From Planctobacterium marinum (GTDB lineage: Bacteria > Pseudomonadota > Gammaproteobacteria > Enterobacterales > Alteromonadaceae): a DNA stretch of 64,000 nt. This document shows, in pieces, positions 1-27,909 of the stretch (position 1 is the stretch's first letter; the number at the start of each line of letters is the position of its first letter). Below the pieces are notes generated by a model that was not told the DNA's origin, did not search any database, and saw nothing but the letters and a program-made list of their open reading frames with translations. The translations under genes were made by a program, and so were the position numbers. The stretch is from positions 3,596,001-3,660,000 of the forward strand of contig NZ_AP027272.1 in NCBI RefSeq assembly GCF_036322805.1. Reading direction: 5' to 3'.

Positions 1-549
1 GCGTTAAGAGCAAATGAGGCCGGCTTTTCTCCCTACTGGCAATTTCCGGTCTGCTCTCGAGAGGTTAGGAAGCTTAGTTTGGTTGCGCTCAATTTCTCTG
101 GAGATTTACACGAAAGTTGGCGAGCTTCATTCGGCACGGAACTGAGGGATCCGACTGCTGACAGGCGCATAATAGAATATTGTTTGGCTATTCCCGATGA
201 ACAATACTTGAATCGAAAAGGTTTGCGCTGGCTGGCAACCCGGGCTTTTGCCGAACAACTACCAAAGGCAGTACTACACAATAACTTGCGTGGTACGCAA
301 GATCCGGGTTGGTATTTGCGTATGCAACAAAGCAAAAGAGAGCTTGAATTAGAATACGAACGATTGGTACAAAACACCACGGCGCAGCAAGTGCTAGATT
401 TACCAAGGATGAGACAATTGTTGAACGACTGGCCAGACAATTCTGCGAACTGGAATTCGAAACAAATAATAGGTAGATACCGGCTAGGATTGTCACGAGC
501 CATAATGGTAGGACGTTATATACGCTGGTTTGAAGGAGACAAACGTTAA
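1..549 (+). CDS. Asparagine synthetase-like lasso cyclase (C protein), C-terminal part only
   Basis: The reading frame is open from the first base of the window, so this is the 3' end of a gene that begins to the left (182 codons seen). The residues ELRDPTADRRIIEYCLAIP, then a G-x-R-x-L pair and a LP-x-x-V stretch, match the end of the ATP-dependent amidotransferase domain of asparagine synthetase B. In RiPP loci this family (lasso C protein) adenylates an Asp/Glu side chain to close the lasso ring. The link to a lasso-type pathway is inferred from the B2 protease and ABC exporter downstream; the sequence alone could also be an ordinary AsnB-like enzyme. It converges on the oxygenase remnant, leaving a gap of about 36 bases. 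A TTG at 79 is an internal codon, not the start. Confidence 0.75.
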   Translation, partial: ALRANEAGFSPYWQFPVCSREVRKLSLVALNFSGDLHESWRASFGTELRDPTADRRIIEYCLAIPDEQYLNRKGLRWLATRAFAEQLPKAVLHNNLRGTQDPGWYLRMQQSKRELELEYERLVQNTTAQQVLDLPRMRQLLNDWPDNSANWNSKQIIGRYRLGLSRAIMVGRYIRWFEGDKR

Positions 550-585
550 GGTCCAGGCAGTCCAAAGTGCCGGGCATGAACTATT

Positions 586-1566
586 TCAATAGCGCTCCAA
601 TCTAACTGGCAATCGATGCCCCCAATTTTCTTTGCGCCAAGGTCCATCGATGAAGTACGAAGACTCATGGGCAAAGTTTAAATAGCCACAAGAAGACAAA
701 ATTAAGCGTTGGTCATCTTCCACTATCGCCCTTCGACCATGCATATGTCGTGAGTTATCTAACATAAGAACATCAGACTCCTGCCAGTTAACCTCATGGG
801 TAATCTGCTCAGCCTCATCTTTGACGGTCTGTAAAAGCTCAGTTGAAACCAACGTACCATCGCCAAAGAATGGAAAGTTCTTCAGCTTATGCCTGAATCG
901 CGCGATGAGTAACAAGTTGCCAAACGCCAATTGATTTTTCCACATTGGCTTGTGTAACGCTGGTACGATGTAAGATGAGGATATTCCATCTTTTGTTTTG
1001 ATGAAATTAAAAGGACAATCACTTCTGATTGAGCTTAAATCATTCTTGTCGTTCAACCAGAAATCGAGTTCTTCTTGCGTCGCCCTGTTTTGATAGACCA
1101 AAAAATTTTTCTTCAACCGCTTTTGATCATTTACATCAAGTTTCTTGTCTAACCTTTTTACAAGCTCAATTCCATCACAAATAGTGGTTTGTCCTCCAGA
1201 GGTTGGTGGTTTTAAACAGGCAAAAAAACAGACTTCTGGCTTCCATGGGTCTTTAGCGAGTTCAGCGTTCAATGGAAATTCATCAAAGCCCAAATTAACG
1301 GTTTGAATATTATTTTTTCCATCTAATAGTTTTCGCTGTTTACTACCGTTGAATACCGAAAAATCACAAAACGATTGCGCGAAGCTTCTAAATATAGCTT
1401 GATCTGTTTTAAATCCGCGAAATAAAAGTGCACCTTTGTCAAGATAGGCTTCAATGATTTGTTGTCGATCGATGTTAGTTAAACGTTCATCTTTACAGTT
1501 AGGATTAACTTCGAGATAAATACCGAGATCTTTTAACGTGATGTAGGGGATGTCATCAGAGGGACC
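586..1566 (-). pseudogene. TauD/TfdA-like Fe(II)/2-oxoglutarate oxygenase, no start codon, probably decayed
   Basis: The frame holds 326 codons with the TauD-like order: GALLFRGF near residue 48, FPL-N-A-E where the family normally has L-H-x-E/D, CFFACLKPP-TSGGQTT-x-x-DG, and a C-terminal NSRHMHGRRAI segment carrying the distal His and Arg. Family members usually use a His-x-Asp/Glu...His triad to bind iron; here the first His is Asn (codon AAC, one base from CAC). No ATG, GTG, TTG or CTG lies in the first 90 codons, and TAG at 1567-1569 closes the frame upstream. The first usable start, TTG at 1293, would remove the N-terminal third. Missing start plus lost ligand suggest a pseudogene. Such oxygenases can hydroxylate or desaturate RiPP or amino-acid substrates; the substrate here is unknown. 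Confidence 0.6.
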
Positions 1567-2200
1567 CTATATTTCGCCAGGTTTCTAAAATGATTTGGGT
1601 GTAAGAGTACGGAAGACTTAGTATGCCACAAAGCTTGCAAAGCTACTATCGATGTGTACCGAACTTACAGGGGCATAAATTAGCTCTTGTAACACCTGTT
1701 TTTTCCCAGCAAAGAGAAGTTTTACAACGAAAACCATGCAATCCACTATGTTGCTTAACATTTTATCCCCCGGGGTAATTGCGCCAGATCCCAACTACTC
1801 TTCTTCTTATGCCTGTATAACGCTGTGTTTGAGCATTACTGAGACGTTGACACGCCATAAGCCTCTTTTCAATGCAGTTTATGTAATTCTCGAAAAGTAA
1901 CCCATTAACATCAGACTATTTCGATATCAATACTATATTTGGGTATTATATAAACATCAAAGCCCCATTTTAAATGAAGAAAAATTGCAGTGTTCTGGTA
2001 TTGGTAAGGTTATCACTTTTACTATCTGGAACAATATGTATGGCACCGGGGCAGAGCAACAGAACAAAAGCTTCTGGTTGAGTTGGATATTATTGATTTA
2101 GAGGAATAGGCTGGGGTATTTCAAGTCACTCCTAGCAATTAAAGAGGCTCAGTGATCTGCTACTAACTTGATGGCAACAACTCAAAAATACCGTTAAAAA
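1567..2200. other. Gene-poor 634-base gap in the RiPP-like locus, with three doubtful small ORFs
   Basis: No recognisable gene is present. Three short ORFs have plausible starts. Minus 1618-1761 has 47 codons starting MLSNIVDCMV, with GGGGGA five bases before the ATG. Plus 1623-1778 has 51 codons starting MPQSLQSYYR, with GGAAG seven bases before the ATG; it overlaps the first ORF antisense. Plus 1974-2081 has 35 codons starting MKKNCSVLVL, with a hydrophobic stretch ending LLLSGTIC. None shows the usual lasso leader/core pattern: penultimate leader Thr, then Gly or another small residue at core position 1, with Asp/Glu at core position 7-9. The stretch may hold remnants of the oxygenase 5' end. 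Confidence 0.4.
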
Positions 2201-2650
2201 CTAGATAAAGTGTGACACACTGACAAACTCTTGTTCAACATCACCGCCAGTTATTACCCCTTCGCAGCAAGAGAGCCACGCATGTGCAGCCATTCCCTGC
2301 CCATTATTTGAGCCGGACTTAACTCCCAGGTAAAGTTTGCTTGATTGCCCGCGAAAGCCCAGCATCCACTTTGCAGTCATTGCTTGTGGCAAACATAATG
2401 CTTGCCACGGTACATGGTAAGCCGCACTTTTCACAGCCCACGCAATCCTGAAACGCTTTTCTTGAGAGATTTTGGGCTGTTTATGAACACGACTGGTTGA
2501 CATGGACTCACCTATCAATTTAACCCAATATTTAAACGGAAATGCCCAAACCAAAAAGCGCGCGATTGCCAATAGCATACATGCCTCAATCCAAAGTAAT
2601 AATTCCGTAGATTTAATTTGTCTCAGCTTTTTAAGTGTGGTCACTTTCAT
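2201..2650 (-). CDS. Lasso peptide biosynthesis B2 protein (transglutaminase-like leader protease)
   Basis: The product has 149 residues, the usual size for stand-alone B2 proteins. The core is ALCLPQAMTAKWMLGFRG with Cys86 as the likely nucleophile, then LYLGVKSG, then AAHAWLS with His123. This is the Cys-His arrangement of the transglutaminase-like superfamily found in the leader-cleaving half of split lasso B proteins. The N-terminus carries a hydrophobic helix (about residues 17-37), as is common in this family. The ATG at 2650 is preceded by AAAGGA nine bases upstream. The B1 partner (PqqD-like recognition element) is not in the window and may lie to the left. It is divergent from the nucleotidyltransferase gene, with a 99-base gap that could hold promoters for both. 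Confidence 0.8.
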   Translation of the reverse strand: MKVTTLKKLRQIKSTELLLWIEACMLLAIARFLVWAFPFKYWVKLIGESMSTSRVHKQPKISQEKRFRIAWAVKSAAYHVPWQALCLPQAMTAKWMLGFRGQSSKLYLGVKSGSNNGQGMAAHAWLSCCEGVITGGDVEQEFVSVSHFI

Positions 2651-2749
2651 CGCTTTAATCCTTTAGATTTCAAATGAATTCACCTCGCAATAGCAGTGAT
2701 AAAATCGTAAACTAAAGCGACCAGAAAAGACACCAGGATCGCTCAACAG

Positions 2750-3945
2750 TTGCAATTGACTTCAAACTACCAACCGTCAAAAGAATTGTCACTCCTACTT
2801 ACTGCCGCTACTTTAGGCTGTCCGCTCAAGGATAGCCAACGACTAGAATTAACATGGAAGGATATTGACTGGCAAAAGACATTAAAATTAGCAAAATTTC
2901 ATGGGCTGAACTGTTGGCTGGCCGAATATGTAAAAGACGAACCAGAAATACCCAATGAGATAAGGAAAAGGTTGACATTAAGGCACCGAAAACAACTGTT
3001 ATTCCATGTTTTTACAGAGCAAAAAAAACAGAAATAGTAAACCTTCTAACACAAGCCAACATTCGTTTTGCAATCATAAAAGGAGTTGCCATAGCAAAGC
3101 CAGTATTTGGAGAGCGTTGGTATTACCGTTCGATTCTTGATCTTGATATTCTAATTGACCCCGTGCAGCTAGAAAAGGCTTTTGAACTATTGAAAAGCCA
3201 AGGCTATATCGATACTTGCAACGAGCCACTGAACTCTGCTGACTTCAAAAAAATAGCAACCGATCATCAAAAATTAGTGCTCATAGAACACACTATCGAA
3301 CTCCCTGAGCGACAATTGGAATTAGATATTCACTGGAAACTTAGACGCAACGCTCTACTACCCATCGAATATAGCGATTTATTCAATAGTATAAAATCTG
3401 ATAATACTGTCCCCCGCCTAATAGAGCCTCTTGAATTTATATATTTATGCGTTTGTGGAACTAACGATGGTTGGCAAAAATTAAAATCCGTTGTGGATAT
3501 TCTGTATTACGCCCAACTTATTGAGGATTGGACGGTAGTTAATAAATTAGCTGACAGGCTCGGATTAGCACATATTGTCAATGCATCACTTGCAGTATGT
3601 GACTATTTTTTTGGTACATGTTACGGTCCGATTCAGCTAAGTCGCAAAGAACACACCATTTGTGCATTCGTCATAAGTAGTTATCTCAAATATGGTGAAA
3701 TTCCACATGTACACGGGTATATCAATAATAGTAATCTTTACCAGTTTGCTAAATCAACCCTGTCTTGGTGGATGGCGATTAACAGTGATTTAGTTTCACC
3801 ATTAACGGTGCTCAGGGAATTAGCAACACCAAATAACGAAGATATTGCGAAGGGTACATTATCTGATGAGAGTGGTATGGTCAGTCAGCTCTTGAAACGA
3901 TTAGTCAGAATTGTTCGAAAATACTACATGGCTAAACGTGATTAG
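2750..3945 (+). pseudogene. Nucleotidyltransferase family protein (NTP_transf_5 type), split by a frameshift at an A8 run
   Basis: Two frames belong to one gene. Codons from TTG 2750 run to TAG at 3035-3037. The second frame continues the same family from about 3022 to 3945. Joined near 3021-3028 they give about 398 residues, with IRFAIIKGVAIAKP, then RSILDLDILID holding the D-x-D pair of the nucleotidyltransferase fold, then LELDIHW. This matches the uncharacterised nucleotidyltransferases often found in asparagine-synthetase/B2/ABC RiPP loci. The break lies in eight consecutive A residues; one more A would restore a single frame. It could be a true lesion, a sequencing error, or slippage at the A-tract. 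The 3' end overlaps the start of the ABC gene by eight bases when GTG 3938 is used. Confidence 0.7.
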
Positions 3946-5689
3946 AAAATATTTAGCTTTTATCGCCAATATTGTTGGCAAAGACACACTATTTGCTGCG
4001 ACAGGCTTATTTGCACTGGGATTTATGGAAGGTGTCAGCCTGATGTTGATTATTCCATTACTGGCAACTATTGGTGTAACGGAACAACAGGTGACCAGCC
4101 ACCCTATCACCCTCAAGCTTACTCAGTTTGCTGATGCTATCGGTTTACCCTTAAACATTTTTACTGTGCTATTAGCTTTTATAGTATTAATTGCGATAAG
4201 AGAATTGCTTATTAAGCGACAAACCATCCACAATAACGCCATACAACAAAAAATAGTTAATGCATTTCGACTAGAGCTTTATAAAGCGCTTATTTATAGT
4301 AACTGGTTACTTTTCACGAAAATACGCCATTCAGATATGACTCAGGCGTTGACCCAAGATATAAACCGTATTGGCTTGATGGTATTAATCTCTATCAGGA
4401 TGGCCTCTACAATAGTGATCGCCAGCGTCTATTTAATTGGTTCTTTTATTGTTTCGTTTGAGATGACCTTGCTTACTTTTTTAAGCGTTGTTCTACTGTT
4501 GTGGTTTGGACGTAAGAAGCTAAATGACGCCTATCGATTTGGTGGCATTCACACCAGCCATCACGATAAAATGTATTCATTGATCAGTGAGAGCCTCACA
4601 GGTATTAAAACAGCCAAATGTTTTAGTAGCGAAAATCGGCAAGTTGCTGATTTTGCCAGTAACATAGATGCGATTTATGAAGTTCAAAGCCAAACTTGTG
4701 CAAGCAGAGCTAATGCTAAGTTCATGTTTGGCTTAGGTACGGCAATAATTTTGGCCAGTTTTTTATTTATTGCTGTTGAGATGTTACAACTTTCGATAAT
4801 CTCAATCTTGGTATTGGTATTTTTGTTCTCTCGCCTATCACCAAAAGTATCGTTATTGCAACAAGATCTGCTCCGATTAATCAATACCCTACCAGCTTTG
4901 AGCTCCTTTGATCAATTGTTAACGCAAGCTCAGGCATGCTTTGAACAAAATGGAAAAGAAACCAAACTGGTTGCACCAGAAAGACAGATCACCCTTGAAA
5001 ATATCTGCTTTTCTTACATACCCATCGATAATGCAACTACGGTAAAAACCTTAACTGACGTCCAGCTTACTATTCCCGTTGGACAAATAATTGGGATTAT
5101 CGGCCCATCCGGCTCAGGTAAAAGTACTCTCGCAGACATTTTGATGGGTTTGATCGCACCTCAAAGTGGCGAAATCAGAATTGATGGCAATAAACTCAAA
5201 GAAGAGCAATTATTGCAGTGGCGTAGACATATCAGTTACGTGCCACAAGAGACTCACTTATTCCATGATAGCGTCAGAAACAATTTACTCTGGAGCAAGC
5301 CAGATGCTACAGAAGCACAATTGTTGACCGCGCTCAAACAGGCAAATGCGCTCGATTTTGTAATGGCACTACCCCAAGGATTGGATACGTCAGTTGGTGA
5401 AAAAGGAATCGGGTTGTCAGGTGGTCAACGTCAACGCCTTGCTCTAGCAAGAGCATTACTGCCTGACCCAACATTGCTCATTCTGGACGAAGCTACCAGT
5501 GCTTTAGATGATGAAAATCAAAGCACAATTATGAAGGTAATAAATCAATTAAAAGGGAAACTAACTACTGTCATAATCACCCATCATCTATCTAGTCTGC
5601 GAGACGTTGATCGCATATATATTATGAAGAATGGTCAAATTGAGGATTATTTGAGCTCTGAAATTACTGAAAAGAACTTTTTAACATAA
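3938..5689 (+). CDS. ABC transporter, fused membrane and ATPase domains (RiPP exporter type)
   Basis: The 583-residue half-transporter has a six-helix exporter domain (about residues 1-320) followed by an ATPase domain. Walker A is GPSGSGKST (near 390), the Q-loop follows in SYVPQETHLF, the signature is LSGGQRQRLALARA (near 493), Walker B is LLILDEATSALD (near 515), and the H-loop is ITHH. All ATP-binding residues appear intact. There is no N-terminal C39 peptidase, in line with leader removal by the separate B2 protein. Exporters of this type (McjD-like) move the mature peptide out and give self-immunity; that role is inferred from context. GTG 3938 overlaps the preceding stop and is preferred; a TTG at 3911 would add nine residues. 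Confidence 0.8.
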   Translation: MIRKYLAFIANIVGKDTLFAATGLFALGFMEGVSLMLIIPLLATIGVTEQQVTSHPITLKLTQFADAIGLPLNIFTVLLAFIVLIAIRELLIKRQTIHNNAIQQKIVNAFRLELYKALIYSNWLLFTKIRHSDMTQALTQDINRIGLMVLISIRMASTIVIASVYLIGSFIVSFEMTLLTFLSVVLLLWFGRKKLNDAYRFGGIHTSHHDKMYSLISESLTGIKTAKCFSSENRQVADFASNIDAIYEVQSQTCASRANAKFMFGLGTAIILASFLFIAVEMLQLSIISILVLVFLFSRLSPKVSLLQQDLLRLINTLPALSSFDQLLTQAQACFEQNGKETKLVAPERQITLENICFSYIPIDNATTVKTLTDVQLTIPVGQIIGIIGPSGSGKSTLADILMGLIAPQSGEIRIDGNKLKEEQLLQWRRHISYVPQETHLFHDSVRNNLLWSKPDATEAQLLTALKQANALDFVMALPQGLDTSVGEKGIGLSGGQRQRLALARALLPDPTLLILDEATSALDDENQSTIMKVINQLKGKLTTVIITHHLSSLRDVDRIYIMKNGQIEDYLSSEITEKNFLT

Positions 5690-14860: not shown

Positions 14861-16180
14861 TTAGCCCCAGCGTCTCAGCCGATAGCCAAATACCGCGTAA
14901 TAAAGAATGAATAGATAACAAGGCAACATAATCATATAGGCTGTTTGACTGCCAGCATTGTCGGCCAGTAATCCATAGCCTAATGGCAGTACTGCACCAC
15001 CAGCGATCCCCATGATTAATACAGCTGCGCCTTTAGAGGTGAACTTGCCTAAGCCAGTGAGTGCCAGAGGCCACAGGGATGGCCATACCATGGCATTCGC
15101 CAGTCCCAATAACGCGACATAGGTGATCACATCAGGGATCTCGCTAAACCCAGCCCAACCCCACAAGAAAGATAAGCTCTGCTGCTGCGGGTCAGCGAAC
15201 ATAATCAGAGCTGTGAGTAACAGCCCTAACACGGCTGATAGCAACAAGGCCGTCTGCTGTTTGAGATACCTGGGGATCAACACCAATCCCGCCAGGTAAC
15301 CCGCTACCATACCGAACATAGTTAGCGAAGTGAGTGATGTGGCATTCTCAATACCCAATTTAGAGCCGTACAACCCGATGGTATCGCCTGCGACAACTTC
15401 TACACCCACGTAACAAAATAGCGCAATGGCACCTAATACTAATTGCGGAAACTGTAATACCGACCCCGCATCGGCAACTTCAGTGTCACTGTCATCCATG
15501 GAGATTTCGGGGAGTGATGAGAGCTTTAACGCTCCCGCCAAAAGCAACAATACCACGGCCATCCCCACATAAGGCACAACCAGACCATTGGACATGGACG
15601 CTATCTGACTGCTGCGTTCAGCTTCAGTCATGGCTGCCAATGAGGCACTGGAGATATGAGCAAAATCACCCAACACTAACGCGGTGAATAACAATGGCGC
15701 CAATACACCGGCGGCTTTATTGAGCAGGCCCATCACTGCGATACGAGCAGCGGCACTCTCCTCTGGCCCTATCTTAACGATGTAAGGGTTAGACGCCGTT
15801 TGCAAAATAGTTAGTCCTGAGCCCATGATGAACTGTGCCCCCAGAAACAGTGCAAACTCGCGAGATAAGGCGGCGGGCACGAACAATAAGGCCCCTAACG
15901 CAATCAGCGCCAACCCAATCACCATTCCCATGCGATAACCGGTTTTCTCCAACACCATCGCCGCTGGTAACGCCATCACGACATAAGCGACATAAAAACA
16001 GAACGCCACCATCAGCGCCTGCGTTTCTGTTAGCTGACACACCATTTGCAAAAACGGGATGAGTGCACCGTTAAGCCAGGTGACAAAACCGAAGACGAAA
16101 AAAAGCGCACCGATAATTAACATCGGTACCAAGCTGCTGTTTGCAGTGTTTAGAGGTCTGGATACACTATTGCTGGTCAT
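14861..16180 (-). CDS. nagP: FHS-family sugar MFS transporter, probable GlcNAc permease NagP
   Basis: A 439-residue inner-membrane transporter with about twelve hydrophobic segments. FFVFGFVTWLNGALIPFLQ near residue 30 is typical of the FHS (fucose-galactose-glucose:H+ symporter) family. It is the last gene of nagK-nagB-nagA-nagP, and its ATG overlaps the end of nagA by 14 bases. In Shewanella and Alteromonas-type regulons this family member (NagP) replaces the PTS for N-acetylglucosamine uptake. Specificity here is inferred from the operon. The sugar enters unphosphorylated, which agrees with the kinase gene upstream. Confidence 0.88.
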   Translation of the reverse strand: MTSNSVSRPLNTANSSLVPMLIIGALFFVFGFVTWLNGALIPFLQMVCQLTETQALMVAFCFYVAYVVMALPAAMVLEKTGYRMGMVIGLALIALGALLFVPAALSREFALFLGAQFIMGSGLTILQTASNPYIVKIGPEESAAARIAVMGLLNKAAGVLAPLLFTALVLGDFAHISSASLAAMTEAERSSQIASMSNGLVVPYVGMAVVLLLLAGALKLSSLPEISMDDSDTEVADAGSVLQFPQLVLGAIALFCYVGVEVVAGDTIGLYGSKLGIENATSLTSLTMFGMVAGYLAGLVLIPRYLKQQTALLLSAVLGLLLTALIMFADPQQQSLSFLWGWAGFSEIPDVITYVALLGLANAMVWPSLWPLALTGLGKFTSKGAAVLIMGIAGGAVLPLGYGLLADNAGSQTAYMIMLPCYLFILYYAVFGYRLRRWG

Positions 16181-17324
16181 GATTTATTCCTGCTTTATTA
16201 GTTTTTTGCACTCCGGCAACAAAGACAGTATCAATGTTCAATGTGGAGTCCAACAAGATATAGTCCGCGCGTTTTCCCACGGCAAGTTCGCCTAACCGAT
16301 CTGTCATGCCAAGATAGCTTGCAGGGGTATGAGAAGCCATCGCTATTGCCTGCTCCAACGGTAGAGCCAGATCTCTGTGAGCATTTAGTACTGCCTGCCT
16401 CATATCAAGACAAGACCCGGCCAAGGTGCCATCTGGAGTAGTAAGTTTATCGCCATCACGCTGGATCAGCGTATCAAAGTAAGGTAAAGATTGCTGAGCA
16501 CAACCCACATGTGCCATGGCATCCGTTACCAGAAAAACTTTATCGATACCTTTAGTTTCTATTGCCAGCTTGCTCATAGCGGGATGAACATGATGATGAT
16601 CCAAAACTAATCCGGCATAACTCGCCTTATCTGCCAAAGCGGCTCCCACCATTCCTGGCTCTCGAGAAGTCAGTGGCGACATGGCATTATAAATATGAGT
16701 GAACCCGGTCGCTCCCGCCTCAAGTGCAGTACACACCTGCTCAAAACTGGCATTGGAATGGCCCAAGCATACATGTACACCTTGCTCTACCAGGTCTTTG
16801 ATAACATCGGGAGAAACATTATCCGGCGCCAAGGTAACCAAAACTTCGCCTAAATCTTGACGGCAATACAGAGTCAGTTCAGCGTCTGATACCGGACGAA
16901 TAAACTGCTCCGGGTGGACGCCTTTTTTGTCCTTTTGCAGCAGTGGACCTTCAAAGTGGATACCTATAACTTCGTCAACCCCTTCGACTATTGCTTCGGT
17001 GACAGCATCTGCACTGCGCTGCATTGTATCAATGTTGTCGGTAATGAGCGTAGGCAACATGGCGGTAGTACCAAATTGCCGATGCGCATCTACTATCGCT
17101 TTTACCGTAGCCAGTTCTGGCTCGAGATTGAGCAACTTACCGCCACCACCATTCACCTGCAAATCAACAAAGCCCGGTATCAAAGTGCCAGAATAGTGCT
17201 GCTTTGCGACCTTGCTAGCAGCAGAGATATCAGCAATTGTTCCATTTTCAACGGTCACTTTTTGAAATAACTGCCATCCTTCAGAGGTGAGGATCTTGTC
17301 TACCGTAAAACATTGCGTAGCCAT
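16167..17324 (-). CDS. nagA: N-acetylglucosamine-6-phosphate deacetylase
   Basis: NagA converts GlcNAc-6-P to glucosamine-6-P and acetate in the cytoplasm. The 385-residue amidohydrolase has metal and catalytic residues in the expected places: Glu125 in HFEGP, His189 in CLGHSNA, His210 in THIYNAM and Asp268 in VTDAM. PGFVDLQVNG near residue 52 fits the family. ATG 17324 follows AAGGAC. It lies between the SIS-type deaminase (15-base gap) and the transporter. Confidence 0.95.
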   Translation of the reverse strand: MATQCFTVDKILTSEGWQLFQKVTVENGTIADISAASKVAKQHYSGTLIPGFVDLQVNGGGGKLLNLEPELATVKAIVDAHRQFGTTAMLPTLITDNIDTMQRSADAVTEAIVEGVDEVIGIHFEGPLLQKDKKGVHPEQFIRPVSDAELTLYCRQDLGEVLVTLAPDNVSPDVIKDLVEQGVHVCLGHSNASFEQVCTALEAGATGFTHIYNAMSPLTSREPGMVGAALADKASYAGLVLDHHHVHPAMSKLAIETKGIDKVFLVTDAMAHVGCAQQSLPYFDTLIQRDGDKLTTPDGTLAGSCLDMRQAVLNAHRDLALPLEQAIAMASHTPASYLGMTDRLGELAVGKRADYILLDSTLNIDTVFVAGVQKTNKAGINHDQQ

Positions 17325-17339
17325 GTTATTTGTCCTTCA

Positions 17340-18335
17340 TTACACCGTTTCGGTGACTTTTTTAAGTCCGGGAGGCGCATCAGGGTTCATCCCCATAGTT
17401 TGCGCCACGTGCTCCACATCCAGATAAAAGCGTAACATCACCAATAAGGGTAACAATCTGGGTGATAACCCACATTCAGGATGGCTGATGGTCAGCAGCC
17501 TGGCACCGCGATGCGCAACATCTTTTATCTGTTGTTGATGTACAACAAGGGATTCATCTTCAATAATAATATTGATGACCGCCAGCTCGCTTTCCACCAA
17601 CGTCACCGGACCATGAATAAATTCGGCACTGCTAAACGCTTCTGCATGGATACTGCACACTTCTTTCAACTTTAGAGCGATTTCGCGGGCAATAGCATAA
17701 CCAAAACCGCGACCGAGAACGACACAATGACGCAACCCACGCAAGAATTCAGCGGTTAATTGAGGTTTACCCTCGGTGATGGTGTGCAGCGCATTGGGAA
17801 GTTGATGCACGTCATCCAACAAATTGTTATCGCCTTTCCAAACTGCGGTAAGTTGTAATAGCGCCGACAGTGTTGCCATATAGCTCTTGGTAGCAGCGAC
17901 CGCCAACTCGGCTTCGGCGCGAATGGGTAAAATCGCATCGGCCAACGCCGCCAAAGGCGAATAACCATCGTTAACCAGCGCGATACACCAGGCACCTGCC
18001 GCTTGAATCGCTTTAGTCTGATTAAGTAAATCCGGGCTTTTACCCGACTGAGAGATCACAATCGCCAAGGTGTTATGCAGCTGCAACTGCTTTTCATATA
18101 CACCGCTCACAGAAGGAGCCGCAAAACAAACAGGAATACCCAACTCCACCTCAAATAGATATTTTGCAAATACGCCCGCATGGTCGGAAGACCCTCTGCC
18201 TACCATCATGATCATCTTGATGTCACGGCGTTTTATTTCTGCCACCAGGTGTTCAACCACGGGTTGATTGGCATTGAGTTGCTGCTTGATGATATCCGGC
18301 GTAGAAAGCGCTTCTCGCGCCATTAAACTGCTCAT
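17340..18335 (-). CDS. nagB-II: SIS-type glucosamine-6-phosphate deaminase (NagB-II)
   Basis: A 331-residue protein with two SIS (sugar isomerase) domains: MVGRGSSDHAGVFAKY and SQSGKSPDLL in the first, VLGRGFGYAIARE and AEFIHGPVTL in the second. The C-terminal DAPPGLKKVTETV resembles the GlmS isomerase end. It lacks the glutaminase domain of GlmS. In Shewanella and Alteromonas relatives this non-orthologous enzyme replaces classical NagB, turning glucosamine-6-P into fructose-6-P and ammonia. It sits between nagK and nagA in the same operon. Confidence 0.93.
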   Translation of the reverse strand: MSSLMAREALSTPDIIKQQLNANQPVVEHLVAEIKRRDIKMIMMVGRGSSDHAGVFAKYLFEVELGIPVCFAAPSVSGVYEKQLQLHNTLAIVISQSGKSPDLLNQTKAIQAAGAWCIALVNDGYSPLAALADAILPIRAEAELAVAATKSYMATLSALLQLTAVWKGDNNLLDDVHQLPNALHTITEGKPQLTAEFLRGLRHCVVLGRGFGYAIAREIALKLKEVCSIHAEAFSSAEFIHGPVTLVESELAVINIIIEDESLVVHQQQIKDVAHRGARLLTISHPECGLSPRLLPLLVMLRFYLDVEHVAQTMGMNPDAPPGLKKVTETV

Positions 18336-18349
18336 AATAAAACCTCTTA

Positions 18350-19288
18350 TCAGGTTACTGAATGCGCTTCGTTTGCAGAAGCAACATCATGAATATTAAA
18401 AGATTGCGCACATTGGCGTGCGTACAAAACAGCCCCCTCTTCAGGCTCACTCAAAGGGGGCGAAATTTGTTTTGCCAGTTCGCTGGGCAGGTGCTCGGCA
18501 ATAAGTGGAGCAAGGCCGCCAATCAGACTAAACCTGGGTGGTGCCTTGCTCAAAAGCTTGGTGCACAAGGATGCTATATAACCGACGCCGCTTTGAATAA
18601 TGTTTGCAGCTGCCCTGTCACCACGCTCTGCCTGTAAAAAAACTAAGGGCGCCAATGCGGCAAACTCCTTAGGTGCCGCGTCAGCGAACCGCGTAATTAA
18701 TGCCTGTTCGTTTTCACACCCTGTAAATTCCTGAATGGCAGCGACCAGTTTAGAGTCAGGCTGCAGGCCACTTAGTGCCTCAAGGCAGTATTGCACGGCC
18801 GACAGTCCAAACCAGGCTCCACTGCCTTTATCCCCTAACAAAAATCCGTGCCCGCCCAAGGTCAAAGAGCCGTTGTCTGAAGCTACCAGGCCACAACTTC
18901 CGGTACCGATAATAATCACACCGCCCGCTTTACCCTTATGTGCTCCGAGACAGGCAATTTCTAAATCTGTGGTGAGATATGCCGCCTTAAAGGGATGCTG
19001 CCACGTGGTGATGAATTCTTCACTCAGTGTTTCCAGGTTAGCTCCCGCCAGGCCTAATCCAGCAATGACTCGACTGTCGTCAGACTTATCCAAGCCAGCT
19101 TCTTCGCGCGCTTGTAAATAAGCTGCCAGTACCGATTCTTGCGCTTTTTGTGTACCTCTCAGTAGATTTGCAGCTCCAGACAGACCTGTTCCAAGTGTTT
19201 TTCCCTGAGCATCCTGGATAATGGCGCGACACTTACTTCCACCACCATCCACCCCCAAATAAAGCGTTGGCCTATTTGTCAATTTCAC
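18350..19288 (-). CDS. nagK: N-acetylglucosamine kinase (BadF/BcrA ATPase family)
   Basis: A 312-residue ASKHA-fold kinase that phosphorylates GlcNAc at O6. The ATP phosphate-1 loop is LGVDGGGSKCRA (12-23), then IAGLGLAGAN, IIIGTGSCGLVA and GGHGFLLGDKGSGAW. It is the first gene of the nagK-nagB-nagA-nagP operon, with an operator just upstream. The start is not settled: GTG at 19288 lies only one base after GGGAG, while an in-frame TTG at 19282 lies seven bases after it, so TTG 19282 may be the real start. Confidence 0.93.
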   Translation of the reverse strand: MKLTNRPTLYLGVDGGGSKCRAIIQDAQGKTLGTGLSGAANLLRGTQKAQESVLAAYLQAREEAGLDKSDDSRVIAGLGLAGANLETLSEEFITTWQHPFKAAYLTTDLEIACLGAHKGKAGGVIIIGTGSCGLVASDNGSLTLGGHGFLLGDKGSGAWFGLSAVQYCLEALSGLQPDSKLVAAIQEFTGCENEQALITRFADAAPKEFAALAPLVFLQAERGDRAAANIIQSGVGYIASLCTKLLSKAPPRFSLIGGLAPLIAEHLPSELAKQISPPLSEPEEGAVLYARQCAQSFNIHDVASANEAHSVT

Positions 19289-19340: not shown

Positions 19341-19354
19341 TGACAACGCTGTCA
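19341..19354. promoter_or_regulatory. NagR-type operator before nagK
   Basis: TGACAACGCTGTCA, one base off the perfect palindrome found twice before the regulator gene. It lies 53 bases upstream of nagK, in the short gap after the hexosaminidase stop. Confidence 0.85.
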
Positions 19355-19375: not shown

Positions 19376-21976
19376 TCATATCGCTCTCAAATCCAGTACT
19401 GTAATCGGACTGACTTTCATAATTTTCATTGCGTCCGCGCCTTGCTCGGCATCGGACTTTTGAACCGTGCGGCAACTTAATTGACTGGCCTTGCTTTCTT
19501 TTACCAGTCTTCCGGATACTTCAAACCAAGGCTGCTCGTCCAATCGACACTGTACCCCTAAACCTTGCCACAAGGTGTTCACTTTGATCCCCTCTGTCGA
19601 TTTACGCATTCCCGGCGGTGGTAGTCTGTAATTACCTCTGAACAACTTTTGCTCACTCATGTAGCCTGCAAGGGCAGCACTAAATCCCTGCCAGTCACGC
19701 AACTGCTGTTTGGATTGCGGCGTTTTATCTTGATAACTAAAGGTTTGAGCATCGCCGTACTGCACTTCCCAGTCCGCCTTGTGCCAGGCGCGCTCGGCAA
19801 AGGTTTGCAATCTCGGATACATTAAATACTCAAAGGTTTCAGGAGAACGCACTGCCTCGCTCCAGATTTGGCTTTGCATTCCGGCGATACCAGGTTGCGT
19901 ACCTTGGTTACTGGCGGTGTAACTGTGGCCCATACGGTCTGTCCACTGGCTGGCGTTAGCGGCCAGGTTGTCCGGCATAAACTGGAAGACTTTGACACTA
20001 TCGGTATTTTTCGATGCCCAATAATAACCGGTTTCTTTGGGGTGATTGGCATAAGGAAAATCGAAGTACAATACATCTGGATGAGAAAGCACGGTTTTCC
20101 ATCCTTGTTCATCAAAGGCTTTAACCAGTTCGTGTCCGTTCCAATAGAGGGTATCCCAAACATTCACCTGATGCTGCTTACCTGCTTCCAGCTCCAGAAC
20201 CTTGTGCATTCCATCACTCCAGCCGGCAGCGATAAGACCGTGCTTTTCAATAATGTCGATTACCCGAGTCAAAAACATCGGTTTTAAATCTTGAACACTA
20301 TTAATAGTGTCATCGGTTTCAATCAGAGTTTGACACACCGGCGAGTTCACCCAGGCCCCGGCGGTTTCATCAGCGCCTATGTGATAAGTGGACAGCGGCG
20401 CATTAACGGCTTTATGCATGGCTTTTACTTTGCCAATTACGGTGTCAATAAAGTGATAGGTAGACTCCTGGCAGGGGTTCACCGTATTGTCATGGTAAAA
20501 CTGTACTGAGCTGTATTGGGTGTCATCGGCAAAATCACTGAGCAAAAACTCTTCTGCAGCGGCGAGGTTTTCCTGCTTTTTGTATTTGCGATATCGCGCT
20601 TCCATAGCTTTGACAGCGGCTCGTGCATGGCCAGGTAGATCAAAGGAAGGAATTATTTCAATATGACGCTCATGGGCATATTGCAATAAGGCCTGATATT
20701 CTGAGACTGTTAAATAACCATTTACTGCACTATTTTTGTGGGGGCCACTGCCTAGTTGCGGTAAAAGACAGCTGTCTTCTTGTGGGTCAAAACATCTGAA
20801 GCCACCGATTTCAGTCAACTCGGGAAGACCCGGGATCTGTAAACGCCAACCTTCGTCATCGGCAAGGTGCAGGTGTAACTTGTTTAACTTCAAATAAAAC
20901 ATCTGATCCAGCAAGCGATACAGTACCTGTTTACCCAAAAAATTTCGGGATAAATCCACATGCACGCCGCGGAACTCGTAACGCGGCTCATCCTGAATAT
21001 CAACCAGAGGCAGCACCGAGCCTTGTTTTGCCAATAACTGGTAAAATGACACCATACCGTGTTGCAGCCCTTTTCTGTCGGCCGCTTCAATATTGATGCC
21101 CTTATTTTCAATCTGTAAACGGTAGGCAGATTCAGCTAACTCATTATTGAGCTTCAAGGTTAAAGGCACACCATTTTGAGTGGTTGCTATGTTCGCTTTT
21201 TGAAATAGTTCCTGTATTACCCTGTCTTCAGTAAACTCTTGCCAATTTACCTTTATGCCAGTGTCGAGAGATAGCGTTTCAGCGGTATTCCACTCGGCCT
21301 TTTTAACCTGCGGGATGATTCTTGGCGTCACGCTGCTGTGCGGTGTCTCAGCTTTTTCCGGCTCAGCTTGAAGCGTTTGATAATGTTGATATAACCAGGT
21401 GGCATCTGCCAGCGGCAAGTTATCTTCAGGGTTTCGGCGCCATTGCTGCTCGCTTTCAAAAGGCAGCAAATGTGGCATCACTTGCAAGCCAGTGTATTTA
21501 TCGATTTCCGGTATCGTAGATTGCACCACCAGCGGCCCTTCAGTATCAGACACCAAAAAATAGTTGGGCATAACATCAGAATGTGCGGCATGCCAGAAAG
21601 CCGCCTTAAATTGGATATCAACTGCGGTGCCATCGGAAAACTCATTACCTCTGAACAAGACCTGGTGCAAATCACCATTGATATGTTCTATATCAAGCTG
21701 CGGATGGTTGTCCCATTTTATGGGCGCAATATGGCTGAAATACAGTGCAAAGGGTTCACTGGTGACAGACTCCGGCAAAGAAAAACGCAATTTACCGGTA
21801 AAACAATCGCCAGAAAACAAGGCTTTACAGTCCTGGTTGTCGAGATTAGACAACACCTGGTAGTTAACCTGAATAGCATCTGCAAGCTGAGTTAATGACA
21901 TGGCTTTGGCATTCACTTCGTTGCCCAGAATGGCCAGAATCCCAAATAAACTAATAGCTAAACCGCGCAATCTCAT
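19376..21976 (-). CDS. hex: Exported beta-N-acetylhexosaminidase, GH20 family
   Basis: This enzyme removes terminal GlcNAc from chitin oligomers, using the substrate acetamido group as nucleophile. The 866-residue protein has an N-terminal signal-like segment (1-25), a chitobiase-type carbohydrate-binding N-terminal domain, a GH20b domain (about 215-330), and the catalytic barrel from FRGVHVDLSRNF at 335. The catalytic pair is Asp536-Glu537 in HIGADET. The C-terminal part (about 770-866) is a beta-sandwich typical of chitobiases. It is probably periplasmic or outer-membrane associated. It lies between the TonB receptor and nagK; no own operator was seen upstream. Confidence 0.93.
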   Translation of the reverse strand: MRLRGLAISLFGILAILGNEVNAKAMSLTQLADAIQVNYQVLSNLDNQDCKALFSGDCFTGKLRFSLPESVTSEPFALYFSHIAPIKWDNHPQLDIEHINGDLHQVLFRGNEFSDGTAVDIQFKAAFWHAAHSDVMPNYFLVSDTEGPLVVQSTIPEIDKYTGLQVMPHLLPFESEQQWRRNPEDNLPLADATWLYQHYQTLQAEPEKAETPHSSVTPRIIPQVKKAEWNTAETLSLDTGIKVNWQEFTEDRVIQELFQKANIATTQNGVPLTLKLNNELAESAYRLQIENKGINIEAADRKGLQHGMVSFYQLLAKQGSVLPLVDIQDEPRYEFRGVHVDLSRNFLGKQVLYRLLDQMFYLKLNKLHLHLADDEGWRLQIPGLPELTEIGGFRCFDPQEDSCLLPQLGSGPHKNSAVNGYLTVSEYQALLQYAHERHIEIIPSFDLPGHARAAVKAMEARYRKYKKQENLAAAEEFLLSDFADDTQYSSVQFYHDNTVNPCQESTYHFIDTVIGKVKAMHKAVNAPLSTYHIGADETAGAWVNSPVCQTLIETDDTINSVQDLKPMFLTRVIDIIEKHGLIAAGWSDGMHKVLELEAGKQHQVNVWDTLYWNGHELVKAFDEQGWKTVLSHPDVLYFDFPYANHPKETGYYWASKNTDSVKVFQFMPDNLAANASQWTDRMGHSYTASNQGTQPGIAGMQSQIWSEAVRSPETFEYLMYPRLQTFAERAWHKADWEVQYGDAQTFSYQDKTPQSKQQLRDWQGFSAALAGYMSEQKLFRGNYRLPPPGMRKSTEGIKVNTLWQGLGVQCRLDEQPWFEVSGRLVKESKASQLSCRTVQKSDAEQGADAMKIMKVSPITVLDLRAI

Positions 21977-24804: not shown

Positions 24805-24818
24805 TGACAACGTTGTCA
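24805..24818. promoter_or_regulatory. NagR-type operator, proximal to the TonB receptor
   Basis: TGACAACGTTGTCA, a perfect 14-base palindrome, 26 bases from the receptor start codon. The same palindrome recurs 78 bases away. The central CG fits LacI-family operators. Confidence 0.88.
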
Positions 24819-24882: not shown

Positions 24883-24896
24883 TGACAACGTTGTCA
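24883..24896. promoter_or_regulatory. NagR-type operator, second copy in the divergent region
   Basis: TGACAACGTTGTCA, identical to the copy at 24805-24818 and 148 bases before the regulator start. The 78-base centre distance would allow looping or separate control of the two directions. Confidence 0.88.
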
Positions 24897-25043: not shown

Positions 25044-26072
25044 TTGAAAGCTACAATAAAAGACGTCGCAAAACTGGCCGGCGTATCCATAAAAACAGTA
25101 TCCCGAGTTATCAATAAGGAAGATTCAGTTAAGCCTGATACCGAAAGTAAGGTTCAGGCTGCGATTGCAGAGTTGAACTATCAACCCAATAGCTCGGCCC
25201 GAAATCTCGCCGCCACACAATCTTTTGCTATTGGTTATATCTACGATAACCCCAACGCCTATTATGTAATTGATATGCAAAATGGCATACTGAAAGAGTG
25301 CCTCAGCAATGGTTTTGAATTGATTATTCACCCCTGCGACGCTTCCAATGAGCATATCGTGAATGAAGTCAAAGACATGGTGCGTCGCTCGCAGCTTGCG
25401 GGTTTAGTGCTGTCACCGCCCCTCTCAGAAATGCCGGAAGTTCTTTCTGCGCTGGATGAGATTAACATGCAATACGTGCGAATTTTGTCTGGCGCCAATG
25501 ACAAAAAAACCGGCGGGCCTTGCGTGCTGATAAATGACCGAAGTGCCAGTGAAAAGATCACAGAGCATCTCATCAGCGTTGCCCACAAACGCATCGGTTT
25601 TATAACCGGGGACAAGGATCACCAATCCACGGATGAACGATTGCAAGGTTATAAATCGGCATTGAATAAACACCAACTGAAAGCAGATAAATCCCTCATT
25701 ATTGATGGCAGATATTCTTTTGAAGCGGGCGTAGAAGGCGCTAAACAGCTGTTATCGTTAAAGCAGCCACCGAGTGCGATCTTTGCCTGTAATGATGAAA
25801 TTGCGGCCGGCGCCTTGTTCGCAGCGAGACTGATGAATTTTGATGTACCAAAAGACGTGGCTATCGCTGGTTTTGAGGACAACCCATTTTCTCGCCAAAC
25901 CTGGCCCAAGCTCACTACTGCAGCCCAGCCCACCAGTCTGATAGCAAGGCAGGCCACTTCCCTGCTAATTCGCACTATAAAAAACAAGCGCAAGGGCGAT
26001 AAAGAAAAAATAGACAATCAATATTTCGAACCAGAACTTGTGGTAAGGGAATCGACAAAAATAAGCGAATAA
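25044..26072 (+). CDS. nagR: LacI-family transcription regulator, probable NagR
   Basis: A 342-residue repressor. The N-terminal helix-turn-helix is ATIKDVAKLAGVSIKTVSRV (3-22), followed by the hinge helix NSSARNLA, then a periplasmic-binding-protein-like ligand domain (about 60-335) with IAGFEDNPFSRQTWPKLTT near the end. The start is TTG after CAGGGGAT. Two perfect palindromic operators lie upstream and a third lies before nagK, so it probably represses both units and may regulate itself. Known NagR proteins of this type respond to GlcNAc-6-P or GlcN-6-P; the effector here is not shown by sequence. Confidence 0.9.
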   Translation: MKATIKDVAKLAGVSIKTVSRVINKEDSVKPDTESKVQAAIAELNYQPNSSARNLAATQSFAIGYIYDNPNAYYVIDMQNGILKECLSNGFELIIHPCDASNEHIVNEVKDMVRRSQLAGLVLSPPLSEMPEVLSALDEINMQYVRILSGANDKKTGGPCVLINDRSASEKITEHLISVAHKRIGFITGDKDHQSTDERLQGYKSALNKHQLKADKSLIIDGRYSFEAGVEGAKQLLSLKQPPSAIFACNDEIAAGALFAARLMNFDVPKDVAIAGFEDNPFSRQTWPKLTTAAQPTSLIARQATSLLIRTIKNKRKGDKEKIDNQYFEPELVVRESTKISE

Positions 26073-26084
26073 CGGCGAAAAACT

Positions 26085-27563
26085 ATGATCAATTCAATTC
26101 TCATTGTAGGTGGCGGCACTGCCGGATGGATGACAGCCCTCTATCTGTCTTCCAGACTACCTACTGGTGTTAGTATCTCATTGGTGGAATCACAGGATAT
26201 CGGCACGGTGGGCGTCGGTGAAGGCTCCACGCCGTATCTCAAACAGTTTTTTGATAGTTTGGATATCCCGGAAAAAGAATGGATGGCGCAAACCGACGCT
26301 ACATATAAGTCGGGGATCCGCTTTGATGACTGGAGCCATGAATCTGGTTATGAAAGCTACTTTCACCCCTTTTTCAATGAGTTTGATAAAAAGCCTGCTG
26401 AAATGTTTTTCTATAACTGCGGGTTACGACGACGTGGTTTCGAAGCTAACGCCAACCCCGATAATTATTTTACGGCAGCATACATAGCCGAACGCTTCAA
26501 AAGCCCTGTATTGGCACAAGCGCCAGATATACAGGTAGATTATGCCTATCATTTTGATGCCACTAAATTAGGGCACTTTCTGAGAGACAAGGCCAAGTCC
26601 AATGGGGTGAAACACCATGTGGCCAATGTCACCAGTGTCGGAACCGACAGCAAGGGAAAATTGAAAAGTGTAATGACAGATACCGGGCTTAAACTGGTAG
26701 CCAACTTCTTTGTGGACTGTTCGGGATTTCAATCTCTGTTGGCACAAAAAACCTTGAAGCGAAAATTTGTCAGTTATAGCGACGTGTTATTTAATGACGC
26801 AGCGGTAGCTATTCAAACGCCGACGAAATCGCCCCATAAGTTCAAAGCACAAACTCGCTCGCTGGCATTGAAAAATGGCTGGATGTGGCAAATTCCCCTT
26901 ACCTCGCGTTGGGGAAATGGTTATGTATATAGTTCGCGACATACCACAGCAAAAGACGCGGAAGATGAGCTAAAACAGACATTGGGACTCTCGCCAAATG
27001 CCGAAGTTGAAGCACGGCATTTGAAAATGAAGGTAGGTCGCCTGGAGGAGCATTGGGGCGGAAACTGTGTGGCTATCGGACTCTCTCAGGGATTTATCGA
27101 ACCTCTGGAGGCTACCGCCTTAATGTTGGTACAGTTCGCCATTCAAAATCTATCTTTGATTCTGGAGTCAGGTAGCTTCTCTGGCCACGACATGATGCGC
27201 TACAACAAAGAGATGAATCGCTTGTTTGACGGCGTAAAGGACTATGTGTCCTTGCATTACATATTAAATTCCCGAAAAGACTCTCAATACTGGGTTGACG
27301 CGCGGGAAGAAACGATTGTGTCAGACAATATTAAGTACCTGTTGAAAGCCTGGGATAGAGGTGAAGACTTTGAGGCTGCGTTGAAAGTCATCGAAGAAGA
27401 CCTGGTTTATTTGCGCCCCTCTTGGTATTGCATTTTATCGGGTATGGGCCGTCATCCTGAACGACTGCAGCCCACGGTAAAAGCCGGGCCGGTTAAAGTA
27501 TCTATGGATTATTGTCAGCGTATCACAGATAAGTATTTTCCGGATTATTCTATAACCCCGTGA
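26085..27563 (+). CDS. Flavin-dependent tryptophan halogenase family protein
   Basis: A 492-residue FAD enzyme. The dinucleotide loop is GGGTAGW (9-15); GVGEGSTP follows at 43-50. Lys75 in TYKSGIRF is the expected catalytic lysine that forms the halogenating species, and the hallmark W-x-W-x-I-P appears as GWMWQIPL near 264-271. These features suggest a working halogenase. The substrate is unknown; homologues often stand next to TonB-receptor and sugar-uptake genes, away from any antibiotic pathway. It starts 13 bases after the regulator stop, so the two are probably co-transcribed. No flavin reductase gene is nearby. Confidence 0.88.
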   Translation: MINSILIVGGGTAGWMTALYLSSRLPTGVSISLVESQDIGTVGVGEGSTPYLKQFFDSLDIPEKEWMAQTDATYKSGIRFDDWSHESGYESYFHPFFNEFDKKPAEMFFYNCGLRRRGFEANANPDNYFTAAYIAERFKSPVLAQAPDIQVDYAYHFDATKLGHFLRDKAKSNGVKHHVANVTSVGTDSKGKLKSVMTDTGLKLVANFFVDCSGFQSLLAQKTLKRKFVSYSDVLFNDAAVAIQTPTKSPHKFKAQTRSLALKNGWMWQIPLTSRWGNGYVYSSRHTTAKDAEDELKQTLGLSPNAEVEARHLKMKVGRLEEHWGGNCVAIGLSQGFIEPLEATALMLVQFAIQNLSLILESGSFSGHDMMRYNKEMNRLFDGVKDYVSLHYILNSRKDSQYWVDAREETIVSDNIKYLLKAWDRGEDFEAALKVIEEDLVYLRPSWYCILSGMGRHPERLQPTVKAGPVKVSMDYCQRITDKYFPDYSITP

Positions 27564-27621: not shown

Positions 27622-27909
27622 GTGTCCCCCGAGGTGCTTGCTGTTTGTCAGCAATTGATAAAAAGTGGTAAACCGGTCTCGGTTGGTATGCTAAAAGCCC
27701 GCTTGCCGGTAAAAACGCCGTTACCTGCAATTATTCAGGCAGTGCAATATTGCAAACAACAACCACAGGCAGTGGTAGATGCGCCCCCGGCTAATACGGA
27801 AAGCGTTACGAAACCCAACGAATCATCGGAAGCACAAAAAATAATGGAGTTGGAAACAAGAATTGAGGCGCTTGAAAAGCGCCTTGCTGTGCTTGAGCAA
27901 AAAGATTAA
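27622..27909 (+). CDS. Small protein with helix-turn-helix-like N-terminus and coiled-coil C-terminus
   Basis: Family not recognised. The 95 residues have three parts. The N-terminus (1-50) reads like a small winged-helix or KfrA-like fold, with GKPVSVGMLKARLPV and PLPAIIQAVQ. A Pro/Ser/Asn-rich linker follows (50-68). A heptad-patterned C-terminal coiled coil follows (70-93, LETRIEALEKRLAVLEQ). GTG 27622 lies six bases after GGAG. It is convergent with syd and overlaps it by four bases. Confidence 0.7.
   Translation: MSPEVLAVCQQLIKSGKPVSVGMLKARLPVKTPLPAIIQAVQYCKQQPQAVVDAPPANTESVTKPNESSEAQKIMELETRIEALEKRLAVLEQKD

What the first reader, a model, noticed from the sequence alone, without database searches (positions are those of the whole stretch)
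26085..27563. Flavin-dependent halogenase inside the GlcNAc regulon
The gene follows nagR by 13 bases, keeps the GxGxxG, Lys75 and WxWxIP features of a working halogenase, and has no antibiotic genes around it. Related enzymes recur beside TonB receptor genes without a known substrate. A role in chitin-linked aromatic or indole chemistry, or signalling, is possible.
Basis: partly seen in the sequence, partly recalled or inferred. Interest (0 to 1): 0.6.

Follow-up and report, generated by a model that had tools for sequence, protein, structure and literature searches.

The report
Sugar-controlled halogenase paired with outer-membrane receptor
A marine bacterium keeps an intact halogen-adding enzyme under the control switch of its chitin-sugar (GlcNAc) genes; the same arrangement recurs across its relatives, where the enzyme type follows the type of the outer-membrane sugar receptor beside it, so the enzyme is probably an accessory of sugar uptake rather than an antibiotic-making enzyme, although its target is still unknown.

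Summary
Window 26085-27563 encodes a full-length flavin-dependent halogenase (PF04820) with both catalytic residues, 12 nt after a LacI-type nagR in a complete GlcNAc/chitin locus. In 63 nagR loci from the family, 42 hold a halogenase; in 8 of 8 cases where a halogenase stands apart from the TBDT operon it has its own NagR site 62-128 bp upstream. New finding: halogenase phylogeny tracks the locus's TBDT (rank correlation 0.68), not nagR (0.13) or the adjacent GH20 hexosaminidase (0.21). SapC and Cupin_8/JmjC genes share the slot. The pocket lacks the free-tryptophan clamp motif, as BrvH/Xcc4156 do. Best reading: a NagR-induced, TBDT-coupled accessory halogenase whose target is more likely a peptide or protein aromatic side chain than free tryptophan. 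The target is not shown, and no TBDT tryptophan depending on the halogenase was found. The enzyme family is known; regulon membership and receptor-tracking were not found in the open literature searched.

The parts
26085..27563 (+). Flavin-dependent halogenase (492 aa), second gene of the nagR operon; K75 and E342 catalytic
   Evidence: PF04820 E 2e-128; residues invariant in 131 relatives; AF2 model, mean pLDDT 78, best PDB match PyrH 2wet TM 0.82
25044..26072 (+). nagR, LacI-family repressor (342 aa, TTG start)
   Evidence: PF00356/PF13377; orthologues in 163 of 295 family genomes at E<=1e-85
24805..24818 (.). NagR operator 1, TGACAACGTTGTCA (exact), between the TBDT and nagR genes
   Evidence: conserved position in relatives
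24883..24896 (.). NagR operator 2, TGACAACGTTGTCA (exact)
   Evidence: conserved position in relatives
19341..19354 (.). NagR operator 3, TGACAACGCTGTCA (1 mismatch), between the nagK start (19288) and the hexosaminidase (19376)
   Evidence: same place in L094 and L095
22104..24779 (-). TonB-dependent receptor, TIGR01782 type, divergent from nagR; proposed partner of the halogenase
   Evidence: NCBIfam TIGR01782, 657 bits vs cut-off 310; co-variation with the halogenase
19376..21976 (-). GH20 beta-N-acetylhexosaminidase
   Evidence: PF00728 E 2e-86
18350..19288 (-). nagK, GlcNAc kinase
   Evidence: PF01869; NF046058 348 bits, cut-off 370
17340..18335 (-). nagB-II, GlcN-6-P deaminase
   Evidence: NF046059 502 bits, cut-off 430
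16167..17324 (-). nagA, GlcNAc-6-P deacetylase
   Evidence: PF01979 E 1e-20 and position
14861..16180 (-). nagP, GlcNAc MFS permease
   Evidence: PF07690 and position

Best explanation
This is a working flavin-dependent halogenase (variant-A fold) that belongs to the NagR (GlcNAc/chitin) regulon and serves as an accessory of the TonB-dependent receptor system that takes up chito-oligosaccharides. SHOWN by computation: intact catalytic site; co-directional with nagR at 12 nt with two perfect operators upstream; recurrence in the nag loci of many relatives; own operators when relocated; phylogenetic tracking of the TBDT and not of the regulator or hexosaminidase. INFERRED: GlcNAc-6-P or a related inducer releases NagR; the cytoplasmic enzyme then uses FADH2 (from a general flavin reductase), O2 and a halide (bromide is plausible, by analogy with BrvH and Xcc4156) to make a hypohalous/Lys75-haloamine species that halogenates an electron-rich aromatic ring. 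The ring is probably not free tryptophan, because the Trp clamp is missing. The most economical candidate, given tracking of the TBDT and slot-sharing with a JmjC-type Cupin_8 enzyme (a family that includes protein hydroxylases), is an aromatic side chain in a peptide or protein of the uptake system, perhaps the TBDT before export. Component confidences: regulon 0.9; catalytically competent 0.85; functional coupling to the TBDT 0.75; peptide/protein target 0.35.
For: Active site: K75 and E342 invariant in 131 of 131 and in all 11 members of the nag clade. Regulation: in the whole genome only 3 exact and 5 one-mismatch palindromes exist: 3 at this locus, 1 before an HGSNAT/NagX-like gene, 2 before an MCP gene, 2 at adjacent GH18 chitinase genes. 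In 63 nagR loci there are 102 sites at <=1 mismatch against 0 for the reversed control pattern; 60 of 63 loci have a site (<=2 mismatches) at the nagR/TBDT start; all 8 halogenases transcribed apart from the TBDT operon have an operator 62-128 bp upstream. Recurrence: 42 of 63 nagR loci in the family and 12 of 20 in other families of the order. TBDT coupling: 42 of 54 loci with a TBDT have a halogenase, 0 of 9 without a TBDT (Fisher p about 1e-5, my arithmetic). Mirror tree: FDH-TBDT 0.68 (partial on nagR 0.68, permutation p 0.001), FDH-nagR 0.13; in 24 loci with GH20, FDH-TBDT 0.72, FDH-GH20 0.21, TBDT-GH20 0.07. All 6 own-genome halogenases lie at TIGR01782-TBDT loci. Slot-sharing: Cupin_8 in 5 of 12 halogenase-free TBDT loci and 0 of 42 with one. 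Pocket: the YPYYHG Trp-clamp segment is replaced by a conserved YLRPSWY motif.
Against: No substrate or induction data. No tryptophan in the window-type TBDT is lost in the halogenase-free relative L127, so there is no direct support for TBDT modification. Tracking of the TBDT could partly reflect co-transfer as a block, although the adjacent GH20 gene does not follow. Closely related loci are not independent, so the permutation p-value is optimistic. 21 of 63 nagR loci in the family lack a halogenase, so it is not essential to GlcNAc use. The AF2 model is of medium confidence (pLDDT 50-70 in the 430-470 region that bounds the pocket).
Confidence: 0.55

Rival explanations
1. The enzyme halogenates a free small aromatic (indole or a related metabolite) and the product acts as a signal or deterrent while the cell feeds on chitin; co-occurrence with TBDTs reflects shared use on particulate chitin.
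For: BrvH and the Xanthomonas enzymes, the nearest characterised functional analogues, brominate free indole in vitro and not free Trp (PMC5945002; PMC7336383). The Trp clamp is missing here too.
Against: BrvH turnover of indole is very low and its authors doubt that indole is the natural substrate. A small-molecule role does not predict tracking of the TBDT phylogeny rather than the regulator's, nor two or three different halogenases in one nag locus.
Confidence: 0.3
2. Halogenase and TBDT simply travel together as a mobile block; the enzyme has a generic function unrelated to the receptor.
For: TBDT-halogenase-SapC blocks occur in many unrelated loci and TBDT and nagR phylogenies in nag loci are uncorrelated (0.05), so blocks have been exchanged.
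Against: Halogenases relocated behind nagR or into their own transcription unit keep a NagR operator (8 of 8 of the latter), and the window-type ones keep the pairing with the matching TBDT type wherever they sit in the locus; passengers should lose both.
Confidence: 0.12
3. An ordinary free-tryptophan halogenase feeding an unseen natural-product pathway.
For: Best structural and sequence matches are the Trp 5/6-halogenases PyrH, AbeH, Tar14 and SttH.
Against: The segment that holds the amino-acid backbone in Trp halogenases (YPYYHG) is absent, there is no biosynthetic cluster beside it, and the gene is in a sugar regulon.
Confidence: 0.05
4. Tailoring enzyme for the lasso-peptide-like cluster at the window's left edge.
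For: The cluster is about 20 kb away and peptide Trp halogenases such as MibH exist (cited in PMC5945002).
Against: It is separated by unrelated housekeeping genes, and the halogenase keeps its nag and TBDT neighbourhood in relatives.
Confidence: 0.03

Closest known systems
BrvH (PDB 6frl) and Xcc4156 (PDB 6y1w), 'indole' flavin-dependent halogenases of unknown native substrate
   Same: Same PF04820 fold, catalytic Lys/Glu, no free-Trp clamp, not known to sit in an antibiotic cluster; BrvH also sits beside a second halogenase gene (PMC5945002). A paralogue in this very genome (L092) is close to Xcc4156 (E 2e-175).
   Different: The window enzyme is a different subfamily with a conserved YLRPSWY pocket motif; its best PDB matches are Trp halogenases, not BrvH. 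NagR control is not described for BrvH or Xcc4156 in the passages of the two papers read.
PyrH / AbeH / SttH / Tar14 tryptophan 5/6-halogenases
   Same: Closest solved sequences and folds (E 1e-87 to 6e-91, TM about 0.8); same catalytic machinery, K75 aligns with K75 of PyrH.
   Different: Lacks the YPYYHG Trp-binding segment; in a sugar-catabolic regulon, not a natural-product cluster.
Shewanella NagR regulon (PMC2996990, PMC5343134)
   Same: LacI-type NagR, nagP, nagB-II, nagK, an outer-membrane receptor, nagX and an MCP are named there and found here; palindromic operator.
   Different: Neither paper's main text mentions a halogenase; the RegPrecise entries themselves could not be read.
TBDT carbohydrate utilisation (CUT) loci of Xanthomonas and Caulobacter (PMC1790865)
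   Same: TBDT, regulator, glycoside hydrolase and inner-membrane permease in one locus (the general CUT idea).
   Different: The word halogenase does not occur in that paper.

Membership tests
Flavin-dependent halogenase, variant A (PF04820) | Full-length PF04820 match with GxGxxG flavin site and WxWxIP | tested here: met
   E 2e-128 over residues 5-467; motifs at 9-14 and 266-271
Flavin-dependent halogenase, variant A (PF04820) | Catalytic Lys and Glu (K79/E346 in PrnA) | tested here: met
   K75 and E342, invariant in 131 of 131 relatives and aligned to PyrH
Flavin-dependent halogenase, variant A (PF04820) | Halogenation activity in vitro with FADH2, O2 and halide | not testable with these tools
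   No assay possible
Free-tryptophan halogenase | Substrate loop that holds the Trp amino and carboxyl groups (YY...E region; YPYYHG in PyrH-like enzymes) | tested here: not met
   Replaced by ...LVYLRPSWY-type sequence in all nag-clade members; similar loss described for BrvH
BrvH/Xcc4156 indole-halogenase subfamily | Closest sequence relationship to 6frl / 6y1w | tested here: not met
   Best PDB matches are 8fov, 6nsd, 5hy5, 2wet (E 6e-91 to 8e-88), against 3e-72 for 6frl; may work like them but is another subfamily
NagR regulon member | NagR palindrome upstream of its transcription unit, conserved in relatives | tested here: met
   Two exact operators; 60 of 63 loci, control pattern 0
NagR regulon member | Induction by GlcNAc / derepression without NagR | not testable with these tools
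   Needs RT-qPCR or RNA-seq
TBDT-linked accessory gene | Recurrent linkage and co-variation with the TBDT | tested here: met
   42 of 54 against 0 of 9 loci; rank correlation 0.68 against 0.13 for nagR and 0.21 for GH20
Post-translational modifier of the TBDT | A target aromatic residue present in the TBDT when the halogenase is present and lost when it is absent | tested here: inconclusive
   No such Trp in the window-type TBDTs (one halogenase-free comparison, L127); other halogenase-free TBDTs share many differences at once, so history confounds

The most novel reading that the evidence does not exclude
A sugar-induced post-translational halogenation system of the outer membrane: NagR switches on a halogenase that brominates or chlorinates aromatic residues of the TonB-dependent receptor (or a partner protein) before export, tuning the receptor or masking it from phages and toxins; the same would hold for the other TBDT-halogenase-SapC-Cupin_8 loci of marine proteobacteria.
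Probability: 0.2. Interest if true: 0.9.

Novelty: new variant of a known kind. Interest (0 to 1): 0.6.

Why it matters
Many flavin-dependent halogenases in bacterial genomes lie outside antibiotic clusters and have no known natural substrate; BrvH and the Xanthomonas enzymes are the characterised examples. This locus gives a condition (GlcNAc/chitin, through NagR) and a partner (a particular TonB-receptor type) under which such an enzyme should act, so the question of the natural substrate becomes directly testable in culturable marine bacteria. If the target is a protein, it would be a new kind of regulated envelope modification.

Tried and rejected
(1) Tryptophan of the TBDT that depends on the halogenase: none found; most halogenase-free TBDTs share many extra Trp and look like one lineage, so the test is confounded. 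(2) Two-mismatch NagR sites genome-wide: as frequent as the reversed control pattern, so only <=1-mismatch sites were used for the regulon within the genome. (3) Filing as a BrvH-type enzyme: rejected, another paralogue (L092) is of that type. (4) Filing as a free-Trp halogenase: rejected on the pocket alignment. (5) Literature for halogenase with TBDT, SapC, NagR, Caulobacter or polysaccharide loci: no paper found that describes the link; only open-licence PMC papers were searchable, so prior mention elsewhere, including RegPrecise, is possible. (7) Neighbourhoods outside the order were not surveyed. (8) NagR sites were assigned to genes by position only; no binding was tested.

Full report
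WHAT IS THERE. The ORF at 26085-27563 is real and full length. It is a PF04820 flavin-dependent halogenase (E 2e-128). GxGxxG, K75, WxWxIP and the catalytic Glu E342 are present; K75 and E342 are invariant in all 131 halogenases collected from relatives, which argues for a working enzyme. The gene starts 12 nt after the stop codon of a LacI-type repressor, so no separate promoter fits between them. To the left lies a divergent TBDT (TIGR01782 type), then a GH20 hexosaminidase, nagK, nagB-II, nagA and an MFS permease, nagP. The window is part of a closed 4.87-Mb genome; the nearest named relative holding the same pair is Planctobacterium marinum K7 (halogenase 81% identical; the matching whole genome is listed as same genus), so the genus is probably Planctobacterium.

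IS IT IN THE GlcNAc REGULON. The palindrome TGACAACGTTGTCA occurs exactly at 24805 and 24883, in the interval between the TBDT and nagR starts, and with one mismatch at 19341, next to nagK and the hexosaminidase. Genome-wide there are only three exact and five one-mismatch copies. Besides the three here they lie directly before an HGSNAT/NagX-like gene, before an MCP gene (two copies) and at a pair of GH18 chitinase genes (two copies), as expected of the NagR regulon described in Shewanella (PMC2996990, PMC5343134). In 63 nagR loci from the family, 102 sites with <=1 mismatch were found against none for the reversed control pattern, and 60 of 63 loci have a site (<=2 mismatches) at the nagR or TBDT start. 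In all eight cases where a halogenase is transcribed apart from the TBDT operon (L112, L114, L124, L131, L132, L133, L138, L157) an operator lies 62-128 bp upstream of the halogenase itself. Control by NagR is therefore probably selected for; actual induction remains untested.

HOW WIDESPREAD. nagR orthologues occur in 163 of 295 sampled genomes of the family. Of 63 distinct nagR loci read, 42 contain at least one halogenase, usually between the TBDT and the hexosaminidase. The window's arrangement, a window-type halogenase directly behind nagR, recurs in seven other genomes of five genera, counting its own genus (L094, L095, L058, L136, L100, L143, L149). In other families of the order 12 of 20 nagR loci have a halogenase, most with SapC.

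THE PARTNER IS THE TBDT. Of 54 family nag loci with a TBDT, 42 have a halogenase; of 9 without, none. Distances between halogenases follow distances between TBDTs (rank correlation 0.68 over 42 loci) and hardly follow nagR (0.13), although TBDT and nagR are themselves uncorrelated (0.05). In the 24 loci with a hexosaminidase, a gene normally adjacent on the other side, halogenase-TBDT is 0.72 but halogenase-hexosaminidase only 0.21 and TBDT-hexosaminidase 0.07. Linkage alone should have affected the hexosaminidase as well. The window case is telling: its halogenase sits behind nagR, away from the TBDT, yet clades with halogenases from loci with the same TBDT type, including L104, L142 and L153 where it lies behind the TBDT. 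nagR genes that score closer to the window's nagR than those of L058, L136 or L149 do (for example L108, L113, L114, L132, L133) come with other TBDT types and other halogenases. Outside nag loci, 40 of 55 halogenases read had a TBDT within three genes, among them loci with alpha-amylase, GH31 and MFS genes. In the own genome all six halogenases lie at four loci with TIGR01782 TBDTs.

OTHER GENES IN THE SLOT. SapC (PF07277) and Cupin_8/JmjC (PF13621) proteins occupy the same position. In the family nag loci Cupin_8 occurs in 5 of 12 TBDT loci without a halogenase and in none of 42 with one, whereas elsewhere both occur together (for example L065). Cupin_8/JmjC includes protein hydroxylases (general knowledge), so one oxidative side-chain modifier may stand in for another. 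This is inference.

SUBSTRATE. The best PDB relatives are Trp 5/6-halogenases, and the AlphaFold2 model matches PyrH (TM 0.82; mean pLDDT 78, lower at the pocket edge). But the YPYYHG segment of the Trp halogenases is absent and replaced by a YLRPSWY motif conserved through the nag clade. BrvH and Xcc4156 also lack the Trp clamp; they act on indole but not on free Trp, and their authors suggest a peptide-like substrate (PMC5945002; PMC7336383). A search for a TBDT tryptophan that depends on the halogenase found none, so the protein-target reading stays a hypothesis.

VERDICT. The indole/signalling idea is unproven; the evidence moves the emphasis from chitin chemistry to the outer-membrane receptor. 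The enzyme family is known; a halogenase as a recurrent NagR-regulon member that tracks its TBDT was not found in the searchable literature. Statistics are from related, non-independent loci and the permutation p-values are optimistic; the contrast between TBDT, nagR and hexosaminidase is the stronger argument.

Noticed in passing
window 1-5689 and L216 2909-13190: Lasso-peptide-like cluster: full Asn synthetase (651 aa, L216 6095-8050), TauD-type oxygenase, Transglut_core3/lasso-B2 (PF13471, window 2201-2650), NTP_transf_5, ABC transporter, and further left a PqqD-like 109-aa ORF, two HPr-kinase-like ORFs and a sulfotransferase-like ORF (these four named by eye only).
   Followed up: partly
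L210:7946, L211:8218 and 8304, L212:8068 and 8836: The remaining NagR operators of the genome, at an HGSNAT/NagX-like gene, an MCP gene and a pair of GH18 chitinase genes.
   Followed up: yes
phage records H1-H20: Halogenases about 35% identical occur in 70 phage records, mostly cyanophages of Synechococcus and Prochlorococcus, also Pelagibacter and Campylobacter phages; their role is unknown.
   Followed up: no
window 27622-27909 (+): 95-aa ORF with no Pfam match behind the halogenase; an ORF of similar size lies in the same place in P. marinum K7 (L094), not in most other loci; it could be a third gene of the operon.
   Followed up: no
window 24805/24883 and relatives: The paired NagR operators are spaced 77-79 bp in this genus and mostly 53-67 bp in other genera, which might matter for looping or for divergent control.
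   Followed up: no
L213:7538-8260 (-): A second SapC gene of this genome stands alone, without a halogenase beside it.
   Followed up: no
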